23,951 nucleotides of DNA from a virus. Position numbers and translations under genes: made by a program. This document shows positions 3,474-23,604 of the stretch, piece by piece. Where the stretch lies: positions 1 to 23,951 of the IMG/VR virus record IMGVR_UViG_3300022693_000718; one strand, given 5' to 3'. The notes beneath the pieces are model-generated. The model searched no databases. It saw only the letters and a list, made by a program, of their open reading frames with translations, and had not been told where the DNA came from. Position 1 is the stretch's first letter. Each line of letters begins with the position of its first letter.

Positions 3474-3860
3474 ATGCCCGTTTGGCCTGACCTACCGACT
3501 GATCCGATGTACGGGTGGACCGAAGTGCCTGGAAACGCCACGATTCGGACAGAGACAGATTCCGGTCCAGCAAAGACTCGCAAGCGGTTCAGTTCTGCAC
3601 CAAGTAAGTTCTCACTTCAGTTCGCGATGTCAACCACTCAAGCAACGCGACTGATGCAGTTTTACACGAATTCGTCTGATGGTGATCCCGCTGGTACTGC
3701 GAGTGGTTCGTTGACCTTTGGTGGGTTGCCTCATCCGCGAGACAACTCTGCGGTAACTGCAACTCTCTTGACCGGATGGAGATTCACGTCGCCGCCCACG
3801 ATCACGCAGAATTCATTTGGTCGCTTTAATGCGACCGTTCAATTGGAGTTGATCGAATGA
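3474..3860 (+). CDS. Minor/distal tail protein
   Basis: This 128-residue protein starts immediately after the tape measure stop. It is beta-rich with many Thr and Ser. A basic segment RKRFSSAPSKFSLQF is followed by a helix (TTQATRLMQFYTNS) and further strands ending in VQLELIE. That layout fits the small minor tail proteins (lambda gpM or DUF2460/distal-tail-like) found between the tape measure and the DUF1833/NlpC genes. No catalytic motif is visible. The exact family is uncertain; the role rests mainly on position. The next gene overlaps it by ATGA at 3857-3860, suggesting translational coupling. Confidence 0.65.
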   Translation: MPVWPDLPTDPMYGWTEVPGNATIRTETDSGPAKTRKRFSSAPSKFSLQFAMSTTQATRLMQFYTNSSDGDPAGTASGSLTFGGLPHPRDNSAVTATLLTGWRFTSPPTITQNSFGRFNATVQLELIE

Positions 3861-4366
3861 GTCGGAGCGTTTCATCTGCTGCACGTCAAGCAATGTACTC
3901 GCAAAGTACCGAAGAGTTGTTTGTTCTCTTGCTTCAAATTAGCAATGAAGATGATCCGTCTGAGCCGATACGAACTGCGCTTGACTCGAAAAACTTGGAT
4001 TCCAAGATCACGGTTGATGGTGTCGATACATATTCGACTCCAGTTACATTTGCAGGGGGCTTTTTCGGAATCGAGCTACCTGAAGAGGCTGGAGAGAATA
4101 TCTCCAATGTTCGCCTGTCTATCGACAACGTAGACAGGGCGATTGTCACTGCCATTAGAAACGCATCTGAGCCGCCTGAAGTGCGGATGTGGATCGTTCT
4201 ACGAGACACACCTGATGTCGTTGAAGCTGGACCGTTTTATTTTGTGCTTGAAAGCGCAGAATACAATGGTTCAACGGTTACGGGTGAACTCGCCTTTGAG
4301 GATGTGACAAACAGACGCTATCCGAAGCACGAGTTCACACCGCATCTCACACCAGGGCTATTCTGA
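3857..4366 (+). CDS. DUF1833-like distal tail protein
   Basis: This 169-residue protein has the features I associate with phage DUF1833: an N-terminal helix then EELFVLLLQIS, a FGIELPEEAGENISNVRLSI segment with the conserved DNVDRAIV that follows, a central acidic PDVVEAGPF and a C-terminus FTPHLTPGLF. DUF1833 and related DUF2163-type proteins are usually encoded just before an NlpC/P60 peptidase and a J-type protein, exactly the order here. They are thought to form part of the distal tail or tail tip. The gene is coupled to both neighbours by stop-start overlaps (ATGA upstream, TGATG downstream). Confidence 0.78.
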   Translation: MSRSVSSAARQAMYSQSTEELFVLLLQISNEDDPSEPIRTALDSKNLDSKITVDGVDTYSTPVTFAGGFFGIELPEEAGENISNVRLSIDNVDRAIVTAIRNASEPPEVRMWIVLRDTPDVVEAGPFYFVLESAEYNGSTVTGELAFEDVTNRRYPKHEFTPHLTPGLF

Positions 4367-7700: not shown

Positions 7701-9731
7701 TGGTCCGATTCAGGAGAGCTATTACGTTCGACAACCATTGGTTCAGGGTTTACGAGTGGTCTTCTGATTGATGGGTTCCGATATGGTTCGATAGATGAGA
7801 TCGAACTTTCAGCAGATGTCGATTATACCGTTGGAGCTTTGTATATTAGTCTTGACGGGAATGCGTTTCTTGATGGACATAATGCGTTTCCGCCAAATAC
7901 AGGTATTACGTGTACGCAAAGCGTATACAGTAGTGATGGTGGTTCCACCTTTACTATGCCTACGATTCCGCCTTCTGACGGAGACTTTCGTTGGATCGGT
8001 CCTAATATTGGATTTACAGGCTCTGCTAACGTAGAACCTCGCATCGGTGATCTCGTTCTATTCGGAGAGCGGAACATCGAGAGTTTGGAATGTATTATCC
8101 AGCGCATCTCTCCGCGTAACGATTTGACTGCGGTGATTGAATTGGTCGAATACAACGAAGCGGTCTACGACCCTGGGCCGATCCCCATGTACAATTCCAA
8201 GATCTCACTCCAGGCGAATCCGGTGCTATTGCGTCCAATCAATCCAGAGTTTGTAGGTGATCCGATTAGTGACGAGACGGTGATTGCATTCACCTCTGCG
8301 GGTGCCCCAGAGGCTCGGATCGTTATCAATGTCATCACACCGCAGAACGCAATAGGCACTTATTCCCCAACGACGCATTACCATGCACAGTTCCGAGGCA
8401 AGAGCGATGATGTTGCTGTGACTGGTTGGTACAACGTCCATCGCGTCGAAGCACTTGGCAACACGCGCATCGTGATCTATCCGGTTGAAGAAGGTGAGAT
8501 GTACGATATTCGCGTTCGCGCTATATCGGACCAGAGTGCAACAGCTAGCGAATGGATATACAAGAACAATCACACCGTCATCGGTCAATCGACTCCACCT
8601 GACCCGCCTGCTTTTCTATCAGTATGGGGCGATGCAATCCGCTGGAGCTACGGTGAGAAGCCGCAAGACTTTGCCGGGTTCATCGTCAAGCATCAGGCAG
8701 GAACCGACGCAACTTGGTCAACGGGGATCGTTCTCTCGGAGAATCTCATCACCGACAACTGGGTCCAGATCGGTGGACGGATTCAACCAGGGAATACAAC
8801 GCTGATGGTTCGCGCTGTTGATATCGGCGGCAACGAATCAACGACTCTCTCTACTGTTAAATTGATCGCCAGCCCAGAAGATCTCGACGTTGTATCTTCT
8901 GCAACGTGGACGGGATTCTGGAGCGGTACGAAAACGAACTGTGCGGTTGATGTTGTAACAGGATATCTAATCGCAGATATAAACGAATCGCCGCTCTTCT
9001 GGCCTGGAAGCGATGCTTCTACCTACTGGGCTGGAGACGATGATATAGATTTCTGGGGTCTTACCAACTACAATAATATGGTCTACGAACAAGCTCACAC
9101 ATTGGCCTACGACCCGGATGATGCAGAGAACCCACCTGAATGGCCCGCTGATGTTTACATCCCAGGCAAGCAGCGATTCGTAGACTTAGAGATCGAAGGG
9201 TCAGACTACAAGGTCGAATATCGTGCCTTGAAGACTTCCTCCGGTTCTGTCTATTACCAAGACTGGACACCGTGGCCTGGGGAGCGAACGATGCACGAAG
9301 TCGAGTTCCCTTGGCTTGATGCTGGTGTAGGCGGAGTATTGGAGAAGATCTATTTCAGAATTACGATCTCGGCAGGTGCAACAATTGGAAAGATAAAGGC
9401 GGCGAAGATTATCATTGAAGGACTCCCGAAGACGCATCGAGAGACGGTAACGATAAGCTCTGCACAAACAGCCGGAGTAGTTGTTGATATAACATCGGCA
9501 ACTACGGGCAAGGTGTGGCGCAAGATCACAAACGTGACTATCACTCCGGTTCAAGATGGAGTTACCAATCAGGGTGGCCTATTCGGGACGATGCACGACT
9601 TGCTTGCGAAGCACGAACCCGGAGGAACGGAAACAGGGGCTTGGGAGTTATCTGGTCCGACGCTCCAACTTTGGAATAGTGGTCTTACTAACACACATGG
9701 CGCAGCCGTCGTCGTACTTGAAGGATACTAA
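4737..9731 (+). CDS. TipJ/J-type host specificity tail-tip protein
   Basis: A 1664-residue tail-tip protein related to lambda gpJ, the central fibre hub that contacts the host. Residues 1-80 carry the J-type N-terminus. A hydrophobic hairpin at about 84-121 (GKGILSIVLGIVIIAA) precedes the conserved SGQSNTARLYGPI and the stretch GKYRVYPDLLGKP. A beta-barrel core follows, including the segments RPHAIRTHF and LSLWGVADSEQAFRDARYHL. A carbohydrate-binding-like jelly-roll insertion seems to lie at 610-775 and a DUF4082-like domain at about 886-1099. Fibronectin III-like domains occupy roughly 1178-1378. The C-terminal 280 residues form a further beta-rich, Trp-rich region that is probably receptor-facing. 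The start at 4737 is set by the ribosome binding site. The next gene starts four bases after the stop. Confidence 0.9.
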   Translation: MLPATIDVQTARNPFESNRVNSYAIEGETIETIIMSQGLRLDGVYTVNAVINGELVPERMFAKVRPKAGTLVVLRVIPRGGNVGKGILSIVLGIVIIAASWGTLTPLVVIAAGAAIYSGIQSILAPPPAVPFSGDIPESQNSPALSGQSNTARLYGPIRTVLGKYRVYPDLLGKPFIETVGHDSIIRMLLCFGYGPLDITDIRIGEIPIMELISSSDYNVLQGWDDDAPLTIFRDEVDFDGTIKPELPRETPEVANLTTKPGPEEISFDIVFPGGLIAIDKNGKPQPVTVRLSIKEKETGGAFLPIGDPSGGVDYDTETLTGITKVSDGLFDIKLKERGSVTRGFRWTVPVGSTVGVVHHVKVTRVLTLTSVSDSKQIISDATITGIRTIKPHIESKIKNLAKIELKINASDTGLSGVIGNLSAICTSIAPKFDSLTQSWGPAKASSSAYNASMFPTRNAAWLFAQVLRGPANSRPIDDSRIDGPGLGDWAGNLEGTGGEPISGTIDVPRNLDAVIDYKTTTRKVLADIAGASRSALNLVDGKYGVVQDIPRDQIIQHFSPRNSRNFSGAKSFHRRPHAIRTHFINPQPVNNGPLSYQKDERIVYDDGYSEDGDHVVDLAFRGSTTPTTLLEGGPGASAAWSRSPIDAFLVGNQGYSVRFSVLGNNPEFYNTTNNLLSIDADENKFVRVRMRRVIAGDEIWRGRLVFQSGTAAFDILGGMSQLQSTEPDWTKGWITVVWDLSDNSDWTGTIDRLRFDFTQAGSGGSYDIESIIVDNDTKRAEEFAELSLWGVADSEQAFRDARYHLASTKLRPEVFTIEVDVEHLVCNRGDLVRISHDVIGVGFGGARFTDVTTNAQKQFLGGTLDEEFVYEDDKNYAIRIRGMTPNSEEPANIMVNIENQGSSNSPSSRISIDDPFSFSDDLPILVPPIGTTNIRNNGVGSNFAGMLGYEFQSSSVLVINVLGVWDGPNFTGGDPGLGLEEETQIGLWSDSGELLRSTTIGSGFTSGLLIDGFRYGSIDEIELSADVDYTVGALYISLDGNAFLDGHNAFPPNTGITCTQSVYSSDGGSTFTMPTIPPSDGDFRWIGPNIGFTGSANVEPRIGDLVLFGERNIESLECIIQRISPRNDLTAVIELVEYNEAVYDPGPIPMYNSKISLQANPVLLRPINPEFVGDPISDETVIAFTSAGAPEARIVINVITPQNAIGTYSPTTHYHAQFRGKSDDVAVTGWYNVHRVEALGNTRIVIYPVEEGEMYDIRVRAISDQSATASEWIYKNNHTVIGQSTPPDPPAFLSVWGDAIRWSYGEKPQDFAGFIVKHQAGTDATWSTGIVLSENLITDNWVQIGGRIQPGNTTLMVRAVDIGGNESTTLSTVKLIASPEDLDVVSSATWTGFWSGTKTNCAVDVVTGYLIADINESPLFWPGSDASTYWAGDDDIDFWGLTNYNNMVYEQAHTLAYDPDDAENPPEWPADVYIPGKQRFVDLEIEGSDYKVEYRALKTSSGSVYYQDWTPWPGERTMHEVEFPWLDAGVGGVLEKIYFRITISAGATIGKIKAAKIIIEGLPKTHRETVTISSAQTAGVVVDITSATTGKVWRKITNVTITPVQDGVTNQGGLFGTMHDLLAKHEPGGTETGAWELSGPTLQLWNSGLTNTHGAAVVVLEGY

Positions 9732-16354: not shown

Positions 16355-16582
16355 TCATTGATCTACCTCTTCCCCAAAGAGTTTGATCCACTGATCTGGC
16401 GTAACTCCGGTGAGAATGAATTCGCGTTCATCGGCGTTGCACTCAAAGAAGAAGTCTTGAACGAGTGGCATTCCCGGCGCACGATCCCAGAAGTCCCACT
16501 GGTCGATCTTCAGCTCAGTGGTATTGATCTCCATCGTGATTGGAAGTCCATCAAACGGAGATGTTCGTGTTAATTTAATCAC
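16355..16582 (-). CDS. Small conserved-type phage protein (hypothetical)
   Basis: A 75-residue protein and the last gene of the leftward operon, with a GTG start that overlaps the nuclease stop (GTGA). The C-terminus ADEREFILTGVTPDQWIKLF plus GEE has the look of a small conserved phage protein (DEREF then TGxTPxxW then FGE). I know such proteins only as hypotheticals carried in phage early regions. The first half is a beta-type segment. There is no membrane segment or catalytic motif. Its link to the nuclease is positional only. Confidence 0.6.
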   Translation of the reverse strand: MIKLTRTSPFDGLPITMEINTTELKIDQWDFWDRAPGMPLVQDFFFECNADEREFILTGVTPDQWIKLFGEEVDQ

Positions 16583-17334
16583 GGGTCAAACCTCGCATCA
16601 GTTGCTGGACTCCAACACCATTCTGCACGATCACACCACTTGCAGAATTTACAAGCATGACTCTTTGCCTCTGCCGGTCTTGGTGGTGGGAATTCGGAAT
16701 CATCGGTGACAATCATTGATTCTTGCAGGATCTGTTCACCTCGATCAGAGTCCTTCTCGATCTGCTCCCAGTGCATCTCACTGGTGTCTTTGTTGTAGAC
16801 GCAGATAACTGCGTCATCGATGTCATCAATGAAATGCATATATGCCTGAAGCTGATCTGCGTAGCCGGGATTCCAGGCTTCATAGCCAACCTTCTTGCAG
16901 AGATCGAAGCGGGCTGATTTTGCAGTCTTGATCTCAAGCAACGAATTCTTTTTCTGCATTCTACCGCTACGCGACCAGTTCAGAATGCCATCGATGTGCC
17001 CGATGAACGGGAAGCGTCCAACTTCAAGTTGTTGTGCGACCACCTGATAGCCTGGAGTGGCATTGATCAGAGCAACGATTTCAGCCTCGATGACGTGTCC
17101 CAGCCTGAAGATCTTCAGCAGTGGCGCTTTGAATCCTCTGCCAACATCGAGTGGCAACCCGTTAAAGACTGCCCAGCGTTCTCGATAGCAGCGTCCAGCG
17201 GCTGACATGCGATCCACATCGGGTGGATTTTCAGTGGCACCGACCCGTTTTATTTCTTCGATCTGATTCAGTTCTTTATCGATATCGTTATTGATCTGAT
17301 CGATAGACTTGATCAGGACGCGATCAATCTTCAT
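16579..17334 (-). CDS. PD-(D/E)XK exonuclease with Cys cluster (Cas4/RecB-like)
   Basis: A 251-residue nuclease. The ATG at 17334 follows GAGGAG; a TTG at 17346 is an upstream alternative that overlaps that site. The core motifs are GHVIEAE (His80), GHIDG (Asp115) and LLEIKTAKS (Glu134 and Lys136), then YADQLQAYM, which is the metal-dependent PD-(D/E)XK layout of RecB, Cas4 and phage exonucleases. One Cys precedes the core (AAGRCYRERW, Cys49) and four close the protein (ACKFCKWCDRAEWCW, Cys228, 231, 234 and 240). That resembles the split four-Cys iron-sulfur clamp of Cas4/AddB-type enzymes. It probably resects DNA ends for the annealing proteins upstream in the operon. A terminator-like hairpin stands immediately before it. 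Confidence 0.85.
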   Translation of the reverse strand: MKIDRVLIKSIDQINNDIDKELNQIEEIKRVGATENPPDVDRMSAAGRCYRERWAVFNGLPLDVGRGFKAPLLKIFRLGHVIEAEIVALINATPGYQVVAQQLEVGRFPFIGHIDGILNWSRSGRMQKKNSLLEIKTAKSARFDLCKKVGYEAWNPGYADQLQAYMHFIDDIDDAVICVYNKDTSEMHWEQIEKDSDRGEQILQESMIVTDDSEFPPPRPAEAKSHACKFCKWCDRAEWCWSPATDARFDP

Positions 17335-17348
17335 GTTGCTCCTCAATT

Positions 17349-17409
17349 AAAAAACAGGTTGCGCCGCCCATCAATGGAGTCGCCTAGGGAAACGAGCGGC
17401 GCAACCCTG
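17349..17409 (-). terminator. Terminator-like hairpin with U-tract before the nuclease gene
   Basis: GGTTGCGCCGC (17357-17367) pairs perfectly with GCGGCGCAACC (17396-17406). CAG/CTG extends the stem across a one-base bulge, giving about 14 bp with a 28-base loop. On the minus strand the stem is followed by six T (17349-17354) and then, within a few bases, by the GAGGAG and ATG of the nuclease gene. It reads as an intrinsic terminator or attenuator for the leftward operon. Confidence 0.7.
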
Positions 17410-17451
17410 GATCTGGTTTCTGACACAGTGGTGTGCGTCTTCACCAGATCC
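17409..17451 (-). promoter_or_regulatory. Second hairpin in the DUF669-nuclease gap
   Basis: GGATCTGGT (17409-17417) and ACCAGATCC (17443-17451) form a perfect 9-bp inverted repeat with a 25-base loop that can itself pair (CACA with TGTG). It sits directly after the DUF669 stop and shares the base at 17409 with the terminator-like stem. The gap therefore folds into two tandem hairpins. There is no U-tract of its own. It may protect the 3' end or take part in attenuation. Confidence 0.5.
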
Positions 17452-17469
17452 TATTCCTATCTGAACTTC

Positions 17470-18000
17470 TCAGAAAGGAGCCTCATCGAGATCTTCGTCG
17501 TTCTGTTTCGTCTCGCGCTTATTCTTCTTCTTCTTCTCAGCCTTCTTGTCCTTGCCGTCTTCGCCGAAGAAGCGAGCAACACCATTCTCGTTGCCGTCAT
17601 CATCACCATACTTTTCGCGTTGAGCAGCATCCTTGATGCGACTGCGCGTGACTTTGGCGATGACGATGCCACCCTCAATCTCGTTTGTGTCGCTGAAGCC
17701 TGATCGCTCAATGCTGAGAGCATCGAGAATTTCAGCCAGTCTCTGTTTGCCAATGAGTTGTGCCGTCTCATTTGGATTGACCACGTTCAGTCCCTCAAAA
17801 ATAGTACGACCATTGAACTCACCATCAATAACAGTGAGTTGAAGCGGGATGCGAAATCCAGTTCCAGCAGCAGTTGCGACGTAAGATGCTCGCGAGATCA
17901 TCACTCTATATCTGCCGGGTGGAAGTGCAGCATAAGAATTTCCAGCATTTTCGTCATCTGTTGAAACGTCTTCTAGTTCAAGATTTCCGATGATGTTCAT
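17470..18000 (-). CDS. DUF669-family protein, probable ssDNA-binding protein
   Basis: A 176-residue protein starting at the ATG at 18000 with AAGGAAA just upstream; the frame continues further up without support. The core AALPPGRYRVMISRASYV, then GTGFRIPLQLTVIDGEFNGR and LNVVNPNETAQLIGKQRL is the signature of phage DUF669. The middle ends in a low-complexity KKKNKRE stretch. The C-terminus QNDEDLDEAPF is acidic and ends in Pro-Phe, like the protein-interaction tip of bacterial SSB. In many phages DUF669 is coupled to a Sak4-type ATPase, as here (ATGA overlap). A single-strand DNA-binding role in recombination is the best inference. Confidence 0.8.
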   Translation of the reverse strand: MNIIGNLELEDVSTDDENAGNSYAALPPGRYRVMISRASYVATAAGTGFRIPLQLTVIDGEFNGRTIFEGLNVVNPNETAQLIGKQRLAEILDALSIERSGFSDTNEIEGGIVIAKVTRSRIKDAAQREKYGDDDGNENGVARFFGEDGKDKKAEKKKKNKRETKQNDEDLDEAPF

Positions 18001-18791
18001 TTCGATTTTCCTTTTTCTTTGGCTTGAGTTTGTGCTTCTTTCATTGCTTTTTCGACCACAGACCAACCATCGTCGATGCCAATTTTCAGTGAGTCTGGCA
18101 GACCTCGGCGATTCTTGGCAATAAAGCTGCCATCGTCCTGAAAGTGAATGACCCGGCTTTTGGCAGCACTCTTGCGAGTGGTGCGAACTGTGCGCGAACT
18201 GTCCTTATCACCCTTAGTGGTGATGATCTTCTCGAAATCCATGTGAGCAACGACATCTGACCAAGCAACACAGAGCGGAACAGCTTTTTTGTAAAGGTTG
18301 GGCTCCATTCGATCAAAAGCGCCGACAGTTGGATCTTCGACTGTGACGCGAATCGAGTGAGAGATCAGAATGATCTGCATTTCCCGGCTGGAGCGGAGAT
18401 CGTCCAGATCGTGCAGGAGCTTCTCTATTCTGCCAAAACTCTCGATATTGCCTTTGTAGTACGCGAAGTCGGACATGAATTCTTTGCCGTGTCGGTCGCA
18501 GACAGAGCGATCAATCAGATGCTCTACGCCGTCGATGGAGTCGATAACGAGAGTCCTGAAATCGTGATCTTCTTGACTCAGGGATTGAAGTGAATTGAGA
18601 ACATCGTCGTAGGTTTTCGCAATGGGGAAGCATGGCACCTTCAGAAGCCCTGTGCCGTCCTCTGTGCCCAGAACAACAGGCTTGTACGCTAGTGCTGCTG
18701 CATGTGTTTTACCGACTCCTGCGGGACCGTAGAGGAGTACACGGGGAGGCAGTGGTTTGCCTGAGAGTTCGATTTTGGAAATGCTAGACAT
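17997..18791 (-). CDS. Sak4-like RecA-fold recombination ATPase
   Basis: A 264-residue ATPase with Walker A GPAGVGKT (residues 22-29) and Walker B TLVIDSIDG (Asp84). A sensor-like ILISHSIRV follows, then a C-terminal basic tail (EAQTQAKEKGKSK). This is the pattern of the phage AAA_24/Sak4 group of single-strand annealing recombinases. It is the first gene of the leftward operon, with AAGGAAC before the ATG. It is translationally coupled to the DUF669 protein, and a nuclease lies further down. Together they make a plausible recombination set: end resection, ssDNA coating and annealing. A RecA-like strand-exchange role is not excluded. Confidence 0.85.
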   Translation of the reverse strand: MSSISKIELSGKPLPPRVLLYGPAGVGKTHAAALAYKPVVLGTEDGTGLLKVPCFPIAKTYDDVLNSLQSLSQEDHDFRTLVIDSIDGVEHLIDRSVCDRHGKEFMSDFAYYKGNIESFGRIEKLLHDLDDLRSSREMQIILISHSIRVTVEDPTVGAFDRMEPNLYKKAVPLCVAWSDVVAHMDFEKIITTKGDKDSSRTVRTTRKSAAKSRVIHFQDDGSFIAKNRRGLPDSLKIGIDDGWSVVEKAMKEAQTQAKEKGKSK

Positions 18792-23533: not shown

Positions 23534-23562
23534 GATTTCCTTTGTGTTTGGGTGAGCGATAG

Positions 23563-23604
23563 AGCGCCGCAGTCTGCCCTCTCTGACTGCGGCGCTTTAT
23601 TTTC
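23563..23604 (+). terminator. Intrinsic terminator of the rightward operon
   Basis: AGCGCCGCAGTC (23563-23574) and GACTGCGGCGCT (23585-23596) form a perfect 12-bp GC-rich stem with a 10-base loop, followed by TTATTTTCT. The T-rich side is on the plus strand, so it stops rightward transcription just before the convergent gene, whose stop codon lies in the T-tract. The minus-strand side lacks a T-run and is not a good terminator for that gene. Confidence 0.85.

What the first reader, a model, noticed from the sequence alone, without database searches (positions are those of the whole stretch)
17334..17470. Terminator-like double hairpin pressed against the nuclease start
A roughly 14-bp GC-rich stem with a U6 tract ends five bases before the GAGGAG of the Cas4-like nuclease gene, in the middle of the leftward operon. 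There is no room for a new promoter after it. The nuclease can therefore be made only by read-through, by antitermination or from a promoter upstream of the hairpin. A second perfect 9-bp inverted repeat adjoins it. This looks like an attenuator that keeps the exonuclease scarce or conditional relative to the ATPase and the ssDNA-binding protein.
Basis: partly seen in the sequence, partly recalled or inferred. Interest (0 to 1): 0.6.

Follow-up and report, generated by a model that had tools for sequence, protein, structure and literature searches.

The report
Mid-operon terminator after phage SSB gene
A strong transcription stop signal sits directly after the virus's single-stranded-DNA-binding-protein gene and just before its nuclease gene, and many unrelated phages carry a different-sequence stop signal at the same spot, so it most likely lets the virus make much more of the binding protein than of the enzymes encoded after it.

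Summary
On the minus strand, 19 nt after the SSB (DUF669) stop codon, there are two adjoining hairpins. The second (-31.8 kcal/mol) runs into U6, four bases before the GAGGAG of the Cas4-type exonuclease gene. It is far stronger than chance (z -5.7) and is the only strict hairpin-plus-U-run on that strand of the 24-kb record. The stock scan missed it because its loop is long.

Relatives show that it is a recurrent feature. Strict intrinsic terminators, mostly of unrelated sequence, follow the SSB gene in 38 of 77 non-redundant phage loci (34 after removing doubtful ones), against 4 of 87 other co-directional gaps in the same loci (Fisher P about 1e-11 to 1e-9). Compensatory changes keep the stem in homologous sets. 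T4 gene 32 has the same layout.

The hairpin follows the SSB whichever gene comes next, so it belongs to the SSB end rather than to the nuclease. My best reading is a partial, unregulated intrinsic terminator that keeps SSB (and Sak4) transcripts in excess, with downstream genes made by read-through. I found no competing antiterminator. Some lineages keep the gene order without the hairpin, and several have the hairpin without a U-run. No RNA data were available.

The parts
17997..18791 (-). Sak4-like ssDNA annealing ATPase gene (AAA_24), first gene of the leftward operon
   Evidence: phrog_124 E 4.6e-37; Pfam AAA_24 E 4.1e-35
17470..18000 (-). DUF669-type single-stranded-DNA-binding protein gene, stop codon 17472-17470
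   Evidence: phrog_2300 E 1e-22, phrog_6015 (SSB) E 2e-16; Pfam DUF669 E 1.2e-8
17409..17451 (-). Hairpin 1: perfect 9-bp outer stem with inner 6-bp stem
   Evidence: folded at -21.9 kcal/mol
17355..17408 (-). Hairpin 2: GC-rich terminator stem with long loop
   Evidence: -31.8 kcal/mol
17349..17354 (-). U6 tract, predicted RNA 3' end for most transcripts
   Evidence: sequence
17339..17344 (-). Shine-Dalgarno GAGGAG of the Cas4-type nuclease gene
   Evidence: sequence
16579..17334 (-). Cas4-domain exonuclease gene, predicted to be made by read-through
   Evidence: phrog_1990 E 1.2e-30; 48-55% identity to L002, L013, L035/L036
16355..16582 (-). 75-aa gene overlapping the end of the nuclease gene, also beyond the terminator
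   Evidence: phrog_20898 E 2e-11

Best explanation
It is a Rho-independent terminator placed at the 3' end of the SSB gene inside a co-directional replication/recombination operon. RNA polymerase coming through Sak4 and SSB mostly stops in the U6 tract (inferred). This yields abundant Sak4-SSB mRNA with a hairpin-protected 3' end, and the minority that reads through produces the Cas4-type nuclease and the following gene, whose ribosome-binding site begins right after the U-run. The purpose is stoichiometric: SSB coats DNA and is needed in bulk, whereas the nuclease is catalytic. Shown here: the structure, its position, its recurrence, and its maintenance by compensatory changes in homologous sets. 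Inferred: termination efficiency, read-through and the stoichiometric purpose.
For: Fold and U-run far beyond chance. The closest relatives have a hairpin of unrelated sequence at the same junction: L002 -34.0, L013 -45.8, L036 -49.7 with U-runs or UCUUU, and L014 -31.5 without. Set chosen by protein only: 31 of 66 SSB ends have a strict terminator within 130 nt, against 1 of 277 other same-strand ORF ends (P 1.5e-24). Clustered at 80% SSB identity: 38 of 77, against 4 of 87 other co-directional gaps of 30-160 nt (P 2.6e-11). In most positives the next start codon lies roughly 15-35 nt after the U-run. Compensatory changes: four of 13 pairs changed on both sides in the PaMx25-like set, covariation score 0.251 against 0.119 shuffled, 0 of 500; two of nine with no broken pair in the Rosemountvirus/Loughboroughvirus set. 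GenBank annotates a terminator there in PaMx25. T4 gene 32, an unrelated SSB, has GGGGACC-CUAGA-GGUCCCC-U6 just after its stop codon.
Against: No RNA data. At least four of the annotated phages with a gap (L003, L038, L047, L054), and L014 among the close relatives, have the hairpin but no proper U-run. Other DUF669 modules have no gap and no hairpin. The window's loop is longer than in textbook terminators. The loci share ancestry, so the P-values overstate independence.
Confidence: 0.74

Rival explanations
1. The hairpins are mainly an mRNA 3'-end stabiliser or processing boundary: the polycistronic RNA is cut and the hairpin protects the upstream Sak4-SSB segment, so SSB mRNA outlives the nuclease mRNA. 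Termination would be secondary.
For: Some lineages keep a strong hairpin but not the U-run (L003, L014, L038, L047, L054, L084, L086, L107, L112). Double hairpins occur in the window, L013, L035/L036, L037 and L038. T4 gene 32 mRNA is RNase-E-processed near its stop codon and unusually stable (PMC3014915).
Against: About half of the non-redundant loci have a canonical U-run exactly where an intrinsic terminator needs it, which a pure stabiliser does not require.
Confidence: 0.15
2. A regulated attenuator or antitermination switch: a phage factor, ribosome coupling, or SSB itself controls read-through so that the nuclease is made only under some condition or time.
For: Mid-operon position. A weak long-range fold can pair the terminator's 5' arm with SSB coding sequence and the nuclease SD with the SSB end.
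Against: No competing structure within 15 kcal/mol. Hairpin 1 starts 19 nt after the stop, beyond a terminating ribosome. Most other phages have a single simple hairpin with no alternative pairing partner evident.
Confidence: 0.08
3. Chance hairpin or remnant of an inserted element with no role.
For: Single-copy; no primary-sequence conservation; some relatives lack it.
Against: Positional recurrence in dozens of phages with unrelated sequences and compensatory changes.
Confidence: 0.03

Closest known systems
Terminator downstream of phage T4 gene 32 (SSB)
   Same: A GC hairpin and U6 about 25 nt after an SSB stop codon, with further same-strand genes downstream
   Different: Unrelated SSB family; next gene about 145 nt away, leaving room for other signals; T4 gene 32 also has leader autoregulation and RNase E processing (PMC3014915)
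T7-type terminator immediately after the major capsid protein gene (as in LUZ100, PMC10134795)
   Same: Intrinsic stop directly after a protein needed in bulk, within a run of co-directional genes
   Different: Late structural gene, phage RNA polymerase, dedicated local promoter
T1 terminator between rpsU and dnaG in the E. coli rpsU-dnaG-rpoD operon (PMC7863352)
   Same: [quoted passage not shown] genes with very different needs
   Different: Bacterial operon with other internal promoters and processing; a different pair of proteins
T4 mobE terminator between nrdA and nrdB (PMC2988022)
   Same: Intra-operonic partial terminator (~30% termination) proposed to balance two products
   Different: Inside a homing-endonuclease gene, weak, with a separate promoter for the next gene

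Membership tests
Rho-independent (intrinsic) terminator | Stable GC-rich hairpin | tested here: met
   -31.8 kcal/mol, GC-rich 11-bp core
Rho-independent (intrinsic) terminator | U-rich tract immediately after the stem | tested here: met
   UG then U6, or stem extended to CUG and then U6
Rho-independent (intrinsic) terminator | Short loop (about 3-9 nt); typical but not obligatory | tested here: not met
   Loop of 20-odd nt with a small inner stem; most relatives outside the closest group have short loops
Rho-independent (intrinsic) terminator | RNA 3' ends in the U-run in vivo or in vitro | not testable with these tools
   no RNA data
Regulated attenuator (trp/riboswitch type) | Mutually exclusive antiterminator structure | tested here: not met
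   Best alternative about 15 kcal/mol worse, long-range into translated SSB
Regulated attenuator (trp/riboswitch type) | Read-through responds to a signal | not testable with these tools
   needs reporter or RNA-seq
REP-like intercistronic repeat stabiliser | Palindromic element repeated in the genome | tested here: not met
   Single copy in the record
Known structured RNA family (Rfam 15) | Match at gathering threshold | tested here: not met
   No match; only chance-level matches at E about 1

The most novel reading that the evidence does not exclude
The post-SSB terminator is a conserved control point of the Sak4-SSB-nuclease module whose read-through is tuned by SSB level or by translation of the SSB tail (the end of the SSB gene can pair with the nuclease SD), giving feedback between ssDNA coverage and nuclease/helicase synthesis in many phage families.
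Probability: 0.08. Interest if true: 0.7.

Novelty: new member of a known kind. Interest (0 to 1): 0.42.

Why it matters
Mid-operon terminators that set stoichiometry are known one by one. Here the same solution recurs, with mostly unrelated sequences, at one specific junction (directly after the SSB gene) across phages of enterobacteria, Pseudomonas, Vibrio, Sphingomonas, cyanobacteria and many uncultured hosts. Nine literature searches found no description of it as a general rule. It predicts a step in RNA coverage after the SSB gene in many sequenced phages, which existing RNA-seq could test, and it warns that terminator-based operon prediction will wrongly split these operons.

Tried and rejected
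DNA-level search for relatives in phages gave nothing, so relatives were found by protein. Single-protein scans with Cas4 found nothing and with Sak4 found one locus. Genome-contig scans with two alignments found nothing. I first read L002 as lacking the hairpin because the longest ORF starts at ATG 1983; a TTG at 2046 with AAGGGA before it fits the homologous N-terminus better and leaves a -34 kcal/mol hairpin in the gap. A first permissive detector had a background of 0.36 per 130 nt and was discarded for a strict one. still include a few doubtful hits: L040 and L049 lie inside the next gene, and L068 and L127 are unclear; removing four leaves 34 of 77, P 1e-9. Integron attC and REP repeats were considered and dropped: the attC arm order is wrong and the element is single-copy. 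Rfam gave nothing. T7 gene 2.5 abuts the next gene with no gap, so not every phage SSB uses this layout. Literature searches found analogues but no description of this pattern.

Full report
What is there. The window is a 23,951-base virus record. A leftward gene set runs Sak4-like ATPase (18791-17997), DUF669 SSB (18000-17470), Cas4-domain exonuclease (17334-16579) and a 75-aa gene (16582-16355). Between the SSB stop and the nuclease ATG lie two adjoining hairpins and a U6 run that ends four bases before the nuclease's GAGGAG. The 137-nt interval folds at -59.9 kcal/mol, z -5.7 against shuffles. Among all hairpin-plus-U-run candidates it is the strongest in the record (-31.8), followed by a plus-strand one at 23600 (-29.9); under a strict definition it is the only one on its strand. 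The routine scan missed it because of the long loop.

Close relatives. With protein profiles I found viral contigs carrying the same gene order. L002 (55% Cas4 identity), L013 and L035/L036 (48-49%) and L014 (38-39%) all have a strong hairpin between SSB stop and nuclease SD, with no sequence resemblance to the window's. L013, L035 and L036 even repeat the double-hairpin plan. L014 has the hairpin pressed against GAGGAGG without a U-run. In L002 the hairpin sits in the gap if translation starts at TTG 2046, which fits the homologous N-terminus.

Wider set. In annotated cultured phages with Sak4-DUF669 modules and a gap after the SSB, a hairpin was found after the SSB in every case inspected (L003, L037-L039, L041-L048, L050-L054), most with a U-run: 9g, slur01, PaMx25, Klebsiella Kpn2-P2, Rosemountvirus yarpen, Loughboroughvirus ZCSE2, Serratia, Sphingomonas, Microcystis, Erwinia and Aminobacter phages. 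GenBank labels it 'terminator' in PaMx25. Those with abutting or overlapping genes (Moraxella, Streptococcus, Paenibacillus, ct76p945) do not have it, nor do the marine contigs L015-L030 and L008-L011. Tunturi_1 (L007) has a gap after the SSB but no strict terminator.

Statistics. A set of 72 contigs retrieved with a 9g-type SSB profile, plus three Rosemountvirus/Loughboroughvirus-type contigs, selected without regard to hairpins, gave 31 strict terminators in 66 testable SSB ends, against 1 in 277 other same-strand ORF ends. Pooling everything, clustering SSBs at 80% identity and using a stricter control (other co-directional gaps of 30-160 nt in the same loci) gave 38 of 77 against 4 of 87, P 2.6e-11; removing four doubtful positives leaves P 1e-9. 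Several 'negatives' have near-threshold terminators (L080, L099) or big hairpins without a U-run (L084, L086, L107, L112). Hairpins regardless of U-run: 65 of 101 against 35 of 428 controls. That count includes redundant loci, and omits the window itself because its hairpin ends beyond the 100-nt limit.

Selection on pairing. In the PaMx25-like group, aligned on flanking homology, 93.6% of cells pair; four pairs have changes on both sides and the covariation score exceeds all 500 shuffles and all slid registers. yarpen and ZCSE2 differ by two full compensatory changes and no broken pair. These sets are small.

What it belongs to. The gene after the hairpin varies: nuclease, dCMP deaminase, DksA-like protein, DUF165 protein, rotamase or a small ORF before a helicase. 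The constant neighbour is the SSB gene upstream. T4 gene 32, an unrelated SSB, ends the same way, whereas T7 gene 2.5 does not.

Mechanism. In the window only about 14 nt separate U-run and start codon, and no promoter-like site is seen there, so the nuclease needs read-through. No credible antiterminator exists. The simplest model is a fixed partial terminator giving excess SSB mRNA, as for the capsid gene of T7-like phages (PMC10134795), the rpsU-dnaG T1 terminator (PMC7863352) and the T4 nrdA/mobE terminator with ~30% termination (PMC2988022). Hairpins without U-runs in some lineages leave room for an mRNA-stability role. Termination efficiency and read-through are inferred, not shown.

Verdict. 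Real, functional-looking and, as an individual element, of a known kind. What is new is the statistical recurrence after one specific gene in many phages, for which I found no prior description in the searched open-access library.

Noticed in passing
window ~23556-23600 (+): A second very strong intrinsic-terminator-like hairpin (GAGCGCCGCAGTC/GACTGCGGCGCTT, -25 to -30 kcal/mol, then TTTT) beyond the last long rightward ORFs, the likely end of the rightward transcription unit.
   Followed up: no
window 17470-17484 and 17339-17344 (-): The end of the SSB gene (GCTCCT, codons of its ...APF tail) is perfectly complementary to the nuclease SD (AGGAGC), so a translation-coupled masking across the hairpins is conceivable. 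CCN-UUY codons of SSB tails resemble an anti-SD in general, so it may be trivial.
   Followed up: partly
L100-L103, just after the SSB stop (~3483-3570): A tRNA-3'-half-like sequence (GCGGGTTCGAATCCCGC) follows the SSB gene where other phages have the terminator; possibly a tRNA remnant or attachment-like site.
   Followed up: no
window 17409-17451 (-), L013 ~3884-3902, L036 ~3868-3890, L037 ~7947-7968, L038 ~2545-2580: A subset of loci has two tandem hairpins after the SSB rather than one; the role of the first hairpin is unexplained.
   Followed up: partly
L034 4447-4879: SSB and nuclease are separated by about 430 nt in this contig, suggesting an inserted small gene or element at the same junction.
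   Followed up: no
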